Shown here one piece after another: positions 43,424 through 49,393 of a DNA stretch of 49,810 nt; position 1 is the stretch's first letter, and every line of letters begins with the position of its first letter. The notes beneath the pieces were generated by a model. It was not told the origin of the DNA, made no database searches, and was given only the letters and a program-made list of their open reading frames with translations. Both the position numbers and the translations under genes were made by a program. Source of the DNA: Bacilli bacterium. GTDB lineage: Bacteria > Bacillota_I > Bacilli_A > RF39 > UBA660. The stretch lies in contig JAFXZI010000015.1 of the NCBI GenBank assembly GCA_017541325.1, positions 1-49,810 on the forward strand. The letters run 5' to 3'.

Positions 43424-43579
43424 ATGAATATAAAAGTAAGATATTATTCTAGAAGTGGTAATACCAAAGCATTAGCAGAAGCTATTGCAAAAGGAGTTAA
43501 TACTGATGCTATTTCAATTGATTCTGAAAATGCAGATATAAAAGAAGCAGAAGAAACTGCTAAAAAAATTATTGGATAA
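43424..43579 (+). pseudogene. Flavodoxin remnant (internal deletion)
   Basis: 51 codons. Starts VRYYSRSGNTKALAEAIAKGV, the FMN-phosphate loop of a flavodoxin (S-x-[ST]-GNT), then passes after about 30 residues into NADIKEAEETAKKIIG, resembling the C-terminal helix of the family. Normal flavodoxins have about 140-150 residues, so the centre with the remaining FMN loops is gone. Its upstream site is weak (GGGAAAAAT). A terminator follows. It could still be translated as a 51-residue peptide, but it cannot fold as a flavodoxin. Confidence 0.6.
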
Positions 43580-44250: not shown

Positions 44251-44388
44251 ATGAATACAAAGTCAGATAATAGTTGGTTATTTAGTATTATATTAATAAT
44301 TATATTAGGACTAATAATTGGTAAAAAAGCAACAATTAATGGAAAATCATATACTTTTAATATAAATGGTATTTGTACTAATTGTTAG
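44251..44388 (+). CDS. 45-residue single-helix membrane peptide
   Basis: ATG 44251 after ATAGGTGAT. Short polar start (MNTKSDNSWL), one hydrophobic helix (about 10-27, rich in Ile/Leu), then a short outside or inside tail (KKATINGKSYTFNINGIC) ending CTNC. Two Cys in CxxC at the very end. It has its own terminator. No family recognised; the ribosome-binding site and spacing support translation. Confidence 0.6.
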   Translation: MNTKSDNSWLFSIILIIILGLIIGKKATINGKSYTFNINGICTNC

Positions 44389-44417
44389 AAAGAGTAGATA
44401 TAATAATCTGCTCTTTT
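44389..44417 (+). terminator. Intrinsic terminator after the small membrane peptide
   Basis: 44389-44399 pairs with 44406-44416 over 11 positions with one G-U pair. Only a short T run follows. TGTTATAAT at 44419-44427 is the promoter of the ASCH operon. Confidence 0.7.
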
Positions 44418-44465: not shown

Positions 44466-44852
44466 ATGAAAGTTTTATCAATTAGAGAACCATTCGCAAC
44501 ACTAGTAAAAGATAAAGTTAAAATATACGAAACTAGAAGTTGGAAAACAAATTATAGGGGAGAAATATATATTCATGCAAGTATATCACAAAGTAAATCT
44601 GATAACGTTACTAAAGCATCTAAATACTTAAAATCAGATATTAAACCGGGATATATATTATGTAAATGTGAACTTGAAGATTGTATTTTAATGACTAAAG
44701 AATTTATTGATTATATTAATAAAGAAACTAATGAATCAGATTATGGAAGATATGAGATAGGTAGATTTGCTTGGAAACTTAAAGTAATTGAAGTACTACC
44801 AAAACCAATACAAGCAAAAGGAAAACTTGGTATTTGGAATTATGAATTATAG
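44466..44852 (+). CDS. ASCH-domain protein
   Basis: 128 residues. ASCH pattern: MKVLSIREPFATLV (about 1-14), KIYETRSWKTNYRGEIYIHAS (about 19-39; the R-[GS]-x-[IL]-x-I-H-A-S signature) and the C-terminal GIWNYEL strand. ASCH proteins have a PUA-like beta barrel that binds RNA, and some hydrolyse N4-acetylcytidine; the EOLA-type branch has the W-x-T-x-YRG motif seen here. First gene of a probable operon with ART-like (17 bases apart) and ARH genes. Confidence 0.88.
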   Translation: MKVLSIREPFATLVKDKVKIYETRSWKTNYRGEIYIHASISQSKSDNVTKASKYLKSDIKPGYILCKCELEDCILMTKEFIDYINKETNESDYGRYEIGRFAWKLKVIEVLPKPIQAKGKLGIWNYEL

Positions 44853-44869
44853 TTAAAGGAGATATAAAT

Positions 44870-45316
44870 ATGAATGAATTTGAAGAATATATAAATCAAG
44901 ATGTATTTAATCCAAAATATTTATTTCATGGTGCAGCACACGAATATAAGAGTTTAGAATGTAGTCAACCTACAGAAAATGATCCTAATAGTAATGCTAT
45001 ATTTCTAACTAGTTCATTATATACTGCTGCTGCATATGCTTTTAGTAGAGCATTAAAAGAAATAAATGAGCATTATTCTTTTTCAATGAATAATAATGGT
45101 GAATTTCCTGTTATGACATTTGAGGTTGAAAAATTACCAGATGACTTATATGGATACATTTATATTTTTGATAAAGCTGATGATATGATTAAAGATAATC
45201 ATTCTAATACTACTCAATATAGATGTTTTCATTCTTTAGATACAGATAAAGTAATTAAAGTTTATTATAGAGATTTTGAAGAATTCTTTGTAAGAGAGAA
45301 TAATAAAAAGTATTAA
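44870..45316 (+). CDS. Putative ART-fold (ADP-ribosyltransferase-like) protein
   Basis: 148 residues. KYLFHGAAHEYKSLE with H20-G21, AIFLTSSLYTAAAYAF with Y56, and a last strand YRCFHSLDTDKVIKVYY. The opening FHGx motif and the following helix of A-rich residues resemble the NAD-binding half of small ART-like proteins (RNA 2'-phosphotransferase/PARP-like group). The third conserved position is not an obvious Glu. A TYGYIYIFD-type strand lies at about 94-101. The gene directly precedes an ADP-ribosylglycohydrolase (30 bases apart) and follows an ASCH gene (17 bases), so an NAD-dependent modifier plus its remover is the natural reading; call based on pattern and context. Confidence 0.5.
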   Translation: MNEFEEYINQDVFNPKYLFHGAAHEYKSLECSQPTENDPNSNAIFLTSSLYTAAAYAFSRALKEINEHYSFSMNNNGEFPVMTFEVEKLPDDLYGYIYIFDKADDMIKDNHSNTTQYRCFHSLDTDKVIKVYYRDFEEFFVRENNKKY

Positions 45317-45346
45317 AAATTAAAATATTATAAGCAAGGTGATAGT

Positions 45347-46111
45347 ATGTATGGAGCAATAATTGGAGATTTAGCGGGAAGTATTTATGAATATGATCAA
45401 TTAGGACATGTTCATAGTATACAAATGAAAGAATTAATTGAAGATAATGCTTTCTATAGCGATGATACTATTTTAACTATCGCCGTATTAGATGCAATAT
45501 TACATGATAAAGACTATGACTTTTATTTAAGAAAATATATACAAGAATATAGAGAATATAAACCTAATTTTTCTCCGTATTTTAAATCATCATTTTCACC
45601 AAATTTAATAAAATGGAGTAAATCAAATATAATTGGTAATAGTCATGGAAATGGTGCAATGATGAGAATATCTCCTGTAGGATATATGTTTGATACAGAA
45701 CAAGACGTATTAAAAAATGCAAAACTTGCAACTATTCCTTCGCATAATTCAAAGTCTGCAATTGATTCAGCAACTCTAATAGCATTAATAATATATTATT
45801 CAAGAAAAGGTTATTCTAAAGAAGAAATATTTGAAATGATGAAAATAAATCCTATATACATACCATTTTCTAAATTTAATACAACATGTGAAGAAACTAT
45901 AGGAAACTGCTTATTTGCACTTTATAATTCAAATAGTTTTGAAGATGCTATTAGAAAGACTTTATTAATGGGAGGAGATACTGATACTAATTGCGCAATT
46001 GTTGGAAGTATGGCTGAAGCTATATATGGTATAAGTGATGAATTAATTGAACAAACTAATAAAAAATTACCAGAAGAATTTGTAAAAAAACTAGGTAGCT
46101 GTATTAAATAG
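45347..46111 (+). CDS. ADP-ribosylglycohydrolase (ARH/DraG family)
   Basis: 254 residues. Removes ADP-ribose from proteins or nucleic acids, or hydrolyses related substrates. Motifs: GAIIGDLAGSIYE (3-15), SDDT (38-41) for Mg2+/ligand, GNGAMMRISPVGYMF, HNSKSAIDSATL and GGDTDTNCAIVGSMAEAIYG with D211 and D213 as the second metal site. The metal-binding residues all appear intact, so it should be active. Follows the ART-like gene with GGTGATAGT ribosome-binding site. AAGGTGG of the next gene is preceded by its own -10 element (46125-46133). Confidence 0.93.
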   Translation: MYGAIIGDLAGSIYEYDQLGHVHSIQMKELIEDNAFYSDDTILTIAVLDAILHDKDYDFYLRKYIQEYREYKPNFSPYFKSSFSPNLIKWSKSNIIGNSHGNGAMMRISPVGYMFDTEQDVLKNAKLATIPSHNSKSAIDSATLIALIIYYSRKGYSKEEIFEMMKINPIYIPFSKFNTTCEETIGNCLFALYNSNSFEDAIRKTLLMGGDTDTNCAIVGSMAEAIYGISDELIEQTNKKLPEEFVKKLGSCIK

Positions 46112-46148: not shown

Positions 46149-46796
46149 ATGAGATATATTGTACAAAATGATAATTCAGACTATAAAAATGTTATTGATT
46201 CCATTATAAATAATAAAAAGAAAGAGATATTTAGCTTTTTTAATTCTGATGAATTTGAATTATCTTTTAATATATATATTTATGATAGTATAGAAGAATT
46301 AGTTAATGGACTAAAAAAACGAGGATTTAAAGATGACCCTGATTATATGTGTGCTTGTCATAAAGATGAAGATAATTCCCTTAATTTTTTTGAACCAAAA
46401 GATAATCCAAATAGTGATGAATGGTCTAAAGAAGAATATAAAAATGTAATATTTCATGAATTAATACATGGTATTCAATTTAGTATTTTTGGTATTACTC
46501 CTGAATGGTTAAATGAAGGAATAGCAAAATATCTAGACGGAACATATTCTAAAGGTATTAAATGGCTTTTAGATAATTATATAAATAATAATCCTATTCC
46601 TGATCAAAAAGAAATAGAAAATGAATTTGGAATGCATGATTATGATAGTTATGACTATGCTTATATTATGGTTAGTTATTTAATTGATACTTTAGGAAAA
46701 GACGAATTTATAGATTTATTAAAGAATAAAGATAAAATTAATGAAGTAAAAAAAGACTTACTTATAAAAGCAATTAATTATTATAATTCTAAATAA
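46149..46796 (+). CDS. Cytoplasmic gluzincin metallopeptidase (peptidase MA-like)
   Basis: 215 residues. Zinc motif HELIH at 103-107 and the third ligand E123 in EWLNEGIAKYLDG, as in the peptidase MA (gluzincin) clan. No signal peptide or membrane segment, so it should act in the cytoplasm, unlike most of its relatives. Helical C-terminal part (about 135-215). Followed by the HAD-type gene 11 bases later (ACAGGAGGA), so the two are probably cotranscribed. Substrate unknown. Confidence 0.8.
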   Translation: MRYIVQNDNSDYKNVIDSIINNKKKEIFSFFNSDEFELSFNIYIYDSIEELVNGLKKRGFKDDPDYMCACHKDEDNSLNFFEPKDNPNSDEWSKEEYKNVIFHELIHGIQFSIFGITPEWLNEGIAKYLDGTYSKGIKWLLDNYINNNPIPDQKEIENEFGMHDYDSYDYAYIMVSYLIDTLGKDEFIDLLKNKDKINEVKKDLLIKAINYYNSK

Positions 46797-46807
46797 CAGG
46801 AGGATAT

Positions 46808-47404
46808 ATGAAAAAGATAGGAATAGATATTGATGGAGTATTAACTGATGTATATAATTGGTACTTAATTAATGGAAAGAAATATGCAGATAGTTTAGGA
46901 AAATCTTTAGTTAATGAAAAAGGTTATGATGCAAAAGAAATGTATGATTTAACTAATGAAGAATTTACTGATTTTATAGATAAAACAATATGGGATTATT
47001 CTAAAGATGAACCTGCAAGAAAAGATGCTAAAGAAATGTTAGAAAAACTATTAGATAATAATTATGAATTAATTATTATAACTGCTAGATATAAAGCTGA
47101 TAAAGATAATGAAAATGGAAAAAAGATGCGTGAATGCGTAAAAAACTGGTTAAATAATAATGGTCTTAAATATAGTAATATAATATTTAGTGATGATAAA
47201 ACTAAAATATGTAAAGATAATAGTATAGATCTTATGATTGAAGATAAACCAGATACAATTATTAATCTTTCAAACTATATTCCAGTAATTTGTTTTAATG
47301 CTCCATATAATGAAAATATAGAAAGTAAAAATATATATAGAGTATTTAATTGGAATGAAGTATATGATCAAATTAACGATATTTTTGAACATTTTAATAA
47401 TTAA
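46808..47404 (+). CDS. HAD-superfamily nucleotidase-like protein (NT5C/YqfW type)
   Basis: 198 residues. Motif I IGIDIDGVLTD with D7 and D9, motif II IIITAR (about 91-96), Lys in KKMRECVKNWL region, motif IV LMIEDKPDTI with ED. The short helical cap (about 20-75) is of the 5'-nucleotidase C type. Likely removes phosphate from a nucleotide or a small phosphometabolite. Forms a pair with the gluzincin gene. A poorly defined stretch and a micro-ORF follow. Confidence 0.85.
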   Translation: MKKIGIDIDGVLTDVYNWYLINGKKYADSLGKSLVNEKGYDAKEMYDLTNEEFTDFIDKTIWDYSKDEPARKDAKEMLEKLLDNNYELIIITARYKADKDNENGKKMRECVKNWLNNNGLKYSNIIFSDDKTKICKDNSIDLMIEDKPDTIINLSNYIPVICFNAPYNENIESKNIYRVFNWNEVYDQINDIFEHFNN

Positions 47405-47435: not shown

Positions 47436-47546
47436 ATGAATGAAAATAAAACAAATATCAACTGCCTGTCCTGTATTTATGACGACTATCGCTTAAACCC
47501 TTATAAAATGGGAACTTTTAAGAATTGAGATCTTGCAAGTTTTAAT
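47436..47546 (+). CDS. Micro-ORF, first copy (MNENKTNINCL family)
   Basis: 36 residues: MNENKTNINCL, then SCIYDDYRLNPYKMGTFKE, then LRSCKF. Ribosome-binding site AAGGTGG 9 bases upstream. Its first 33 bases match those of the ORF at 49380 at 30 of 33 positions, and the next 45 bases align more loosely (CIYDDYRLNPYK against TLYTNSSLIPYI). The CxxC start could be a metal site but is not kept in the second copy. The peptide could be a short regulatory leader, an antitoxin-like peptide, or a decayed gene fragment. The 131 bases after it (47547-47677) show no clear gene. Confidence 0.5.
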
Positions 47547-47677
47547 AAAAAAGGAAGAAAAATTAGAAAAAATAGGTTAAAATATACTCATTTTTGAGAG
47601 GAATTAGAGTACTGGCTTGTAATATGCCGACAATTATTTTGAAGTATATTTAATATCAATAAAAAGAGGTGAAAAAT

Positions 47678-49393
47678 ATGTCATATTTGAGATGGTGTTT
47701 TAAAGATAGTAGATTAATAGAAGAAGGAAAAGAGATTATAAGTGATACTTGGGATCCATCTAATCCTGATTGGGAACAAAGAGGTGGAATTAATTTTTCA
47801 AATGAAGAAAACATAATTAGATGGATTGCAAGAGGTGATACTTTATATGAGGTTGAAATACCAGAAGATGCAGAAGTAATAAATGTTACTAATAAAAAAA
47901 CTCCTAATGGTATTTTTGTAACCAATAAAATAATTATGAAAAATCCAAAGTCACTAAGTGATGAATTAACTATGGATTTGTATAAAAAATCTGATATGCC
48001 ACTTAAAACATATTTAGAAACCATTGCAGCTTTGGCAATAAGAGGTTGTTATAATACTTCTCTAGAAATTATTAAAGATAAAGTTAATATGGATAATATT
48101 GATGAAGCAATTTATGAATACACTAATTTTATAAAACCTTGGCATGAAGGACATATTAATTATGAGATTTATAATAGTGTATTAGAAGTATTAAACGAAA
48201 TTAAAAGTAGTAAGTTAATTAATTTATTTATAGATAAAGATCCGTATACCATAGAAATAACGGATGATAATGTAATTAACTTAACTGGACAAAGTGGATC
48301 TGGCAAAACGACTTATGCAAAAAAATATTTTAATAGTGATGAATATCTTATTATTGATACTGATGATATATTTAGCGATAATAGATATGAGAATGCTATG
48401 GGAATTAATAAGGAATTAGGAGAATATTTCAGAAGTAAATATGATACCTTACCTAATTGCGGAGATAATTTTGATTTAATATATAAAGAAATACTAGAGT
48501 ATTGTAAAAAATATAATAAAACTATTGTAATTGATTGCGCACAATTTCATTGCATTAAGGATATTGGTATATTAAAAGGTAAACTAATTATTATTAGAAC
48601 CTGTATTAATAATTGTTATAATAGAACGATTGAAAGATATAAAAAGATAACTACAAATTATACAGAGGAAGATTTAAATAAATATATAGAAAAAAAGAAA
48701 TCTTTATTTAAATGGTATAAGTATTCCAATAATTTTATAAAAAATATAGATGATTTTATTAAAAATAGAGATGAACATATAAAAAGTATTAGAAATAGAT
48801 TAATCAATAAAGACTTTTCTTTATTTACTAATAATTGTCTAGCAGGTTTTATTTATCATGATTTAGGATTGAAATTTTTAAGTCCAACCATTAATTTAAG
48901 AATAAAACCTAAAGAATTTATTTCTTTTGTTAGTGATTTAGATTATTATTTAAATCAAGAAATTGTAGAAATAAATGATAGTAATCAATCTATTCCAGTT
49001 GGAATCATTAAAGGGGATGCTCATCATGATTCTGTAACTATTAATTTTGATCATTATTTAACTTTTGATGAAGCAAAAGAAAAATGGATTGATAGAAGTA
49101 AAAGAGTTAATTACGATAATATTGTTGTAATGATGGAATTCTATGATGGAATTCATGATGAAGAGTTGATTCATAGGTTTCAAGGAATTCCATATAAAAA
49201 AATGATCTTAACTCATAAAGATCATAATGAAAACTATACGACAGCAATTCATTGTTTTGATAATAATTTAGATATGGCTGAAATAGGTGGTAAAATATTT
49301 AGATATGACGGAATTACAGGCAAAAGATTTTATGATGAATTTGATTACATAGAATTTTTAAATAAAGGAAGTGATCCAAATGAACGAAAATAA
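47678..49393 (+). CDS. Three-domain protein: unknown N-terminal domain, P-loop kinase-like domain, DUF1919
   Basis: 571 residues from ATG 47678 (AGAGGTG upstream). Residues about 1-175 form a region with GGINFSNEENIIRWIARGDTLYEV and a helical part (TYLETIAALAIRGCYNT) that I cannot name with certainty; the GGIxF...RGDTLYEVEIP lead-in recalls phage-associated proteins of unknown function. Residues 204-212 are a Walker A (GQSGSGKTT), followed by YLIIDTDDIF and TIVIDCAQFHC, as in small-molecule or nucleotide kinases. From about 377 there is a DUF1919 domain (SLFTNNCLAGFIYHDLGL, HHDSVTINFDHYLTF, EEKWIDRSKRVN), otherwise found in polysaccharide-gene proteins. I know no such combination. The stop overlaps the second micro-ORF by 14 bases. 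Confidence 0.75.
   Translation: MSYLRWCFKDSRLIEEGKEIISDTWDPSNPDWEQRGGINFSNEENIIRWIARGDTLYEVEIPEDAEVINVTNKKTPNGIFVTNKIIMKNPKSLSDELTMDLYKKSDMPLKTYLETIAALAIRGCYNTSLEIIKDKVNMDNIDEAIYEYTNFIKPWHEGHINYEIYNSVLEVLNEIKSSKLINLFIDKDPYTIEITDDNVINLTGQSGSGKTTYAKKYFNSDEYLIIDTDDIFSDNRYENAMGINKELGEYFRSKYDTLPNCGDNFDLIYKEILEYCKKYNKTIVIDCAQFHCIKDIGILKGKLIIIRTCINNCYNRTIERYKKITTNYTEEDLNKYIEKKKSLFKWYKYSNNFIKNIDDFIKNRDEHIKSIRNRLINKDFSLFTNNCLAGFIYHDLGLKFLSPTINLRIKPKEFISFVSDLDYYLNQEIVEINDSNQSIPVGIIKGDAHHDSVTINFDHYLTFDEAKEKWIDRSKRVNYDNIVVMMEFYDGIHDEELIHRFQGIPYKKMILTHKDHNENYTTAIHCFDNNLDMAEIGGKIFRYDGITGKRFYDEFDYIEFLNKGSDPNERK

What the first reader, a model, noticed from the sequence alone, without database searches (positions are those of the whole stretch)
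44466..46111. ASCH / ART-like / ADP-ribosylglycohydrolase cluster: candidate reversible ADP-ribosylation system
Three closely spaced genes on one strand (gaps of 17 and 30 bases): an ASCH (PUA-like, RNA-binding) protein, a small protein with an FHG motif like ART folds, and a DraG/ARH enzyme with intact SDDT and GGDTDT metal motifs. A writer next to an eraser is the arrangement of toxin/antitoxin and modification systems such as DarTG, but this one has an ARH in place of a macrodomain eraser and adds an RNA-binding domain. The ART call rests on motif pattern only.
Basis: partly seen in the sequence, partly recalled or inferred. Interest (0 to 1): 0.75.

Follow-up and report, generated by a model that had tools for sequence, protein, structure and literature searches.

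The report
Small ADP-ribosyltransferase gene, private gene cluster

Summary
The trio exists as described (gaps of 17 and 30 bases). The ART call, which rested on a motif, now has structural support. An AlphaFold2 model of 44870-45316 (pLDDT 90) matches, in all 50 listed VIA-align rows, only ADP-ribosyltransferases (Tpt1, Arr, bacterial ART toxins, PARPs). Thirty-one homologues keep His20 (30/31), Tyr56 and Gln116 (31/31); Phe replaces the usual strand Tyr (30/31). Pfam ART-PolyVal matches 14 of 31 members weakly. Activity is untested.

The proposed ASCH-writer-eraser system is not conserved. None of the 33 related loci that carry this ART has an ASCH or ARH gene nearby, and ART and ARH do not co-occur beyond chance in 243 genomes (3 against 1.9 expected).

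In six relatives it is fused to this ART domain, with both active sites intact. Without a fused ART, one zincin clade has a Fic (AMPylating) gene directly downstream, and a diverged copy has an ARH gene. The best reading is an accessory ADP-ribosyltransferase working with a zincin. Here an ARH may have been recruited as a possible eraser, and ASCH is probably a bystander.

The parts
44388..44417 (+). 12-bp hairpin just upstream of ASCH; possible boundary of the transcription unit
   Evidence: RNA fold -14.4 kcal/mol; no clean T-run, so terminator role is inference
44466..44852 (+). ASCH-domain protein, 128 aa (TRIP4/ASC-1-like); one of three copies in this genome, probably a bystander
   Evidence: Pfam ASCH 24.0 bits over cut-off; PDB ASC-1 E 4e-4; found in 136 of 243 family genomes
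44870..45316 (+). Single-domain ADP-ribosyltransferase-fold protein, 148 aa; His20 codon 44927-44929, Phe45 45002-45004, Tyr56 45035-45037, Gln116 45215-45217
   Evidence: AF2 pLDDT 90, pTM 0.85; VIA rows all ART superfamily; conservation in 31 homologues; Pfam ART-PolyVal in 14/31 members
45347..46111 (+). ADP-ribosylglycohydrolase (DraG/ARH), 254 aa; SDDT 45458-45469, GGDTDT 45971-45988
   Evidence: Pfam E 7.7e-32; ARH3 in PDB; 46 of 243 family genomes, no conserved neighbours
46149..46796 (+). MA-clan zincin metallopeptidase, 215 aa, HELIH plus downstream Glu; homologues fused to the ART domain in six relatives
   Evidence: Pfam Peptidase_MA_2 E 1.2e-11; fusion alignments and invariant residues; co-occurrence with ART 4 against 0.7 expected, p 0.003
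46808..47404 (+). NT5C-type 5'-deoxynucleotidase, last gene of the run; link to the rest not shown
   Evidence: Pfam NT5C E 6.9e-16; 11-base gap from the zincin gene

Best explanation
44870-45316 encodes a minimal ADP-ribosyltransferase of the His-Tyr-[Glu/Asp/Gln] branch (here His20, Phe45/Tyr56, Gln116). It most likely binds NAD+ in the cleft formed by its conserved strands and transfers ADP-ribose to a cellular target, probably a protein (target unknown, inferred). It is an itinerant accessory enzyme of uncultured small-genome Bacilli, and its recurrent working partner is an MA-clan zincin protease: the two are one polypeptide in some relatives and separate genes, with one gene between them, here. 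I infer that protease and transferase act on the same target or that one controls the other. In this genome an ARH gene lies between them and could remove the ADP-ribose mark, but that is a local arrangement and not a conserved writer-eraser module. ASCH plays no shown part. Shown: fold, conserved site, fusions, lack of trio conservation. Inferred: NAD+ use, target, joint action, reversal.
For: AF2 model pLDDT 90; all 50 VIA rows are ARTs (Tpt1 Z 7.6, Arr-2 Z 6.9 with 104 residues aligned, PARPs about 5.3-6). His20 30/31, Tyr56 31/31, Gln116 31/31. ART-PolyVal hit in 14/31 members, best E 1.6e-4. Six of 33 homologous loci carry zincin-ART fusions with HExxH/Glu and His/Tyr/Gln all invariant. 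A seventh homologue (L050) is fused to a different N-terminal region containing HETLH, with no Pfam match. The window's zincin is closest to a fused one (73% to L044), not to the zincin of its own genus (63%). ART and zincin co-occur above chance, p 0.003, or 0.016 without this genome. An unfused zincin clade has a Fic gene 3-31 bases downstream in 4 loci, and a diverged zincin has an ARH gene next to it.
Against: Foldseek against PDB gave no match at E<0.001 and VIA Z stays below 8, the range that the tool itself calls middling. Phe45 and Gln116 depart from the best-studied active sites, so catalysis is not assured. The window's ART belongs to the solo clade (nearest L028, 73%), whose other members have no zincin nearby. 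Zincin-ART co-occurrence rests on few genomes, mostly draft metagenome assemblies. The window-L044 zincin grouping has weak support (80/33).
Confidence: 0.55

Rival explanations
1. A self-contained reversible ADP-ribosylation (toxin-antitoxin-like) module: the ART modifies a target, the ARH erases the mark, ASCH supplies RNA binding.
For: Tight same-strand spacing 17/30 bases; both catalytic domains look intact; ART-ARG toxin/antitoxin pairs exist elsewhere (PMC9503650).
Against: The order occurs in no other locus; ART occurs in genomes where no similar ARH was found (7 of 10); ARG immunity enzymes are reported to go strictly with R-S-E ARTs, unlike this His-type ART; the ARH best matches ARH3.
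Confidence: 0.15
2. An Arr-like ART that inactivates a small molecule (antibiotic or nucleotide-like compound) rather than modifying a macromolecule.
For: Similar size and topology; Arr-2 aligns over 104 of 145 residues, Z 6.9; HG[ST] at the end of strand 1 as in Arr; a GNAT acetyltransferase is fused in L039 and adjacent in L028, L034, L045, L046.
Against: No Pfam Arr-ms match in any of 31 members; the catalytic Asp84 of Arr has no invariant counterpart between residues 105 and 112 and Tyr49 is Phe; zincin fusions are not expected of a drug-modifying enzyme.
Confidence: 0.15
3. A catalytically dead or altered ART fold that binds NAD+, ADP-ribose or a nucleic-acid end as a sensor or scaffold for the zincin.
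For: Phe45 for Tyr in 30/31 and Gln116 for Glu in 31/31.
Against: His, the helix Tyr and Gln are almost perfectly kept, and H-Y-[EDQ] ARTs with Gln are a recognised clade (PMC7955679).
Confidence: 0.15

Closest known systems
ART-PolyVal / Tox-ART-HYD2 (PF18760)
   Same: ART fold; nearest Pfam profile (14/31 members, best E 1.6e-4); ARTs of this kind are combined with zincin metallopeptidases in polyvalent proteins (PMC5512222)
   Different: Below the curated cut-off (16.7 against 31.2 bits); published site is H-Y-D, here His-(Phe)-Tyr-Gln; small chromosomal one- or two-domain proteins instead of large phage/plasmid polyproteins
Arr rifamycin ADP-ribosyltransferase
   Same: About 145 residues, single domain, HG[ST] motif, VIA Z 6.9 over 104 residues
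   Different: No Arr-ms profile match; Arr's Tyr49 is Phe and its Asp84 is not conserved; fused to proteases in relatives
Tpt1/KptA RNA 2'-phosphotransferase
   Same: Highest VIA Z (7.6)
   Different: Only 75-84 residues aligned to its C-terminal lobe; no PF01885 match among 31 members
DarTG
   Same: ADP-ribosyltransferase-fold gene beside an ADP-ribose-removing enzyme
   Different: No match to a DarT family or macrodomain; pairing with the ARH is not conserved
DraT-DraG and ART-ARG (Imm-ARG) pairs
   Same: Eraser is an ADP-ribosylglycohydrolase
   Different: The described Imm-ARG pairs go with R-S-E-clade ARTs; this ART is His-type and unpaired elsewhere

Membership tests
ADP-ribosyltransferase superfamily | ART fold | tested here: met
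   AF2 pLDDT 90; all 50 VIA rows are ARTs, best Z 7.6
ADP-ribosyltransferase superfamily | Conserved NAD+-site residues of the H-Y-[EDQ] clade | tested here: inconclusive
   His20 30/31 and Gln116 31/31 fit; the strand Tyr is Phe45 in 30/31, the helix Tyr56 is invariant
ADP-ribosyltransferase superfamily | Transfer of ADP-ribose from NAD+ | not testable with these tools
   needs an assay
ART-PolyVal (PF18760) | Profile score over curated cut-off | tested here: not met
   16.7 bits against 31.2; best relative E 1.6e-4
Arr (PF12120) | Profile match and His-Tyr-Asp triad | tested here: not met
   no PF12120 match at E<=1 in 31 members; no conserved Asp84 counterpart, Tyr49 replaced
Tpt1/KptA (PF01885) | Profile match | tested here: not met
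   no PF01885 match at E<=1 in 31 members; the fold match covers only the C-terminal lobe
DarTG | DarT domain with adjacent macrodomain antitoxin | tested here: not met
   no DarT-family Pfam hit on the ART, neighbours are ASCH and ARH; no PADLOC hit
ART-ARG writer-eraser pair | Conserved adjacency of ART and ARG genes | tested here: not met
   seen only in the window
ADP-ribosylglycohydrolase (45347-46111) | Profile match and binuclear metal motifs | tested here: met
   E 7.7e-32; SDDT and GGDTDT present
MA-clan zincin (46149-46796) | HExxH plus downstream Glu | tested here: met
   Peptidase_MA_2 45.3 bits over cut-off 32.4; H103, E104, H107, E123 invariant in the fusions and conserved in the window

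The most novel reading that the evidence does not exclude
A so far unnamed protease-transferase module in gut Bacilli: an MA-clan zincin coupled to interchangeable protein-modifying transferases, either this ADP-ribosyltransferase (fused in six relatives) or a Fic AMPylase (operonic in one clade), sometimes with an ADP-ribosylglycohydrolase as off-switch (this window and locus L139).
Probability: 0.25. Interest if true: 0.65.

Novelty: new variant of a known kind. Interest (0 to 1): 0.42.

Why it matters
It adds a coherent ART family that curated profiles reach only weakly, with an unusual His-(Phe)-Tyr-Gln site, spread sporadically in uncultured Bacilli with 1-1.5 Mb genomes. If the zincin link is functional, it would show a small chromosomal system that joins a protease to a nucleotide-based protein modification, with ART and Fic swapped in the same slot. 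It also cautions against calling a three-gene neighbourhood a system before checking relatives.

Tried and rejected
Homologues of the ART in phages and plasmids: none; viral contigs gave one weak hit, L061. PADLOC and NCBIfam: no match for the ART. PDB sequence search, single or profile: no relevant match. Foldseek against PDB: no match at E<0.001; the ART evidence comes from VIA, with weaker support from viral models. An apparent ASCH next to the ART in L046 was an artefact of a home-made profile contaminated by a fused C-terminal domain; the gene is a GNAT fused to another domain. AF2 of the zincin-ART fusion gave pLDDT 51 from six sequences and was not used. Promoter/terminator scan: no more sites than shuffles. 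Arr-ms in 149 genomes of the phylum: none. One RhuM-ART overlap clade suggests a toxin-like pairing, but it is confined to one subclade.

Full report
Observation. The three ORFs are at the stated coordinates with gaps of 17 and 30 bases. ASCH scores just over its Pfam cut-off and the ARH scores strongly; the middle protein has only a sub-threshold ART-PolyVal match, E 0.013. Two more genes continue the run on the same strand: a Peptidase_MA_2 zincin 37 bases on and an NT5C nucleotidase 11 bases after that. A hairpin at 44388-44417 precedes ASCH, so the transcription unit may be ASCH-ART-ARH-zincin-NT5C (inference). The window is one 49.8-kb contig of a 1.25-Mb draft genome.

Is the middle protein an ART? 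Related proteins come from 33 loci in uncultured Bacilli and 14 of 243 genomes of the same family, four of these being fragments or weak matches. Thirty-one aligned domains gave an AlphaFold2 model with pLDDT 90 and pTM 0.85. Foldseek against PDB found nothing at E<0.001, but VIA alignment of its candidates lists only ARTs in all 50 rows: Tpt1 (Z 7.6), Arr-2 (6.9, 104 residues), bacterial ART toxins, PARPs. Z below 8 is middling; the uniformity of the list is the argument. Foldseek against viral models gives two matches at E<0.001, both unnamed or uncharacterised, and ART-PolyVal-annotated proteins further down. ART-PolyVal matches 14 of 31 members, best E 1.6e-4, and DUF3990 two.

Active site. 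His20 ends strand 1 (FHG, 30/31), Phe45 sits where PARPs have the first Tyr (30/31, Tyr once), Tyr56 in the following helix is invariant and Gln116 begins the late strand (31/31) (the correspondence to PARP positions is my gapless sequence reading plus the model's secondary structure). A PARP-type H-Y-Y-E tetrad and an H-Y-[EDQ] clade are described in PMC7955679. Activity is plausible but not shown.

Is the trio a system? Neighbours of the other ART loci contain no ARH by BLAST or by a profile, and no ASCH once one artefact was removed. ARH is in 46 of 243 genomes and ASCH in 136. Eight ARH loci of 10-20 kb share no other gene family. ART and ARH co-occur in 3 genomes against 1.9 expected, p 0.29. 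So the trio is, as far as these collections show, private to this genome. ARG enzymes as antitoxins or immunity proteins are already described, with R-S-E ARTs (PMC3482391) and in a phage ART-ARG pair (PMC9503650).

What does travel with the ART? In L044, L048, L051, L055, L056 and L057 the ART domain is the C-terminal part of a protein whose N-terminal part is the zincin of 46149-46796. HExxH, Glu123, and the ART His, Tyr and Gln are invariant in these fusions. L050 has a different N-terminal region with an HETLH sequence and no Pfam match. The window's zincin is nearest to the fused L044 zincin (73%) and less like its genus relative (63%), although its ART belongs to the solo clade. ART and zincin co-occur in 4 genomes against 0.7 expected, p 0.003, or 0.016 without this genome. 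In four loci of one unfused clade the zincin is followed within 3-31 bases by a Fic gene, and a diverged zincin (L139) is followed by an ARH gene. Zincin plus ART is also a known combination in phage and plasmid polyvalent proteins (PMC5512222). This is my ground for a protease-transferase reading; joint action is inferred.

Other contexts. In one subclade a RhuM gene overlaps the ART start by 4-8 bases (L032, L033, L035, L043; ART broken in L042); RhuM has been proposed to be a protein-modifying toxin linked to Doc (PMC3710099). L037 and L040 have a large serine recombinase, or the end of one, just upstream. GNAT genes recur (fused in L039). The ART is thus an itinerant accessory gene.

Verdict. 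Observation confirmed; ART call upheld at fold level; conserved ASCH-ART-ARH system not upheld. Interest lies in the new ART family and its zincin link.

Noticed in passing
L158:8501-9250, L159:9922-10665, L160:8924-9667, L162:6895-7620: A Fic/DOC gene follows unfused zincin genes at 3-31 bases in four related genomes; it takes the place that the ART domain has in the fusions.
   Followed up: partly
L032:3961-5459, L033, L035, L043: RhuM-family genes overlap the start of the ART gene by 4-8 bases in one subclade, a translationally coupled pair.
   Followed up: partly
L139:494-2175: A diverged zincin is followed at once by a different, large ADP-ribosylglycohydrolase gene (Pfam E 3.5e-71).
   Followed up: partly
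L039:5001-5915: ART domain fused to a C-terminal GNAT acetyltransferase.
   Followed up: no
window 47669-49393: One protein joins an unknown N-terminal domain, a P-loop kinase-like domain and DUF1919; a relative of part of it lies near the zincin-ART fusion in L044.
   Followed up: no
window 43424-43579: 51-aa flavodoxin N-terminal fragment, probably a truncated gene.
   Followed up: no
window 47437-47665: Short frame broken by several stops after a good ribosome-binding site, possibly a decayed small gene.
   Followed up: no
G000 C1:45370-45744 and C1:50208-50585: Two further ASCH paralogues in the same genome, one 79% identical to the window copy.
   Followed up: no
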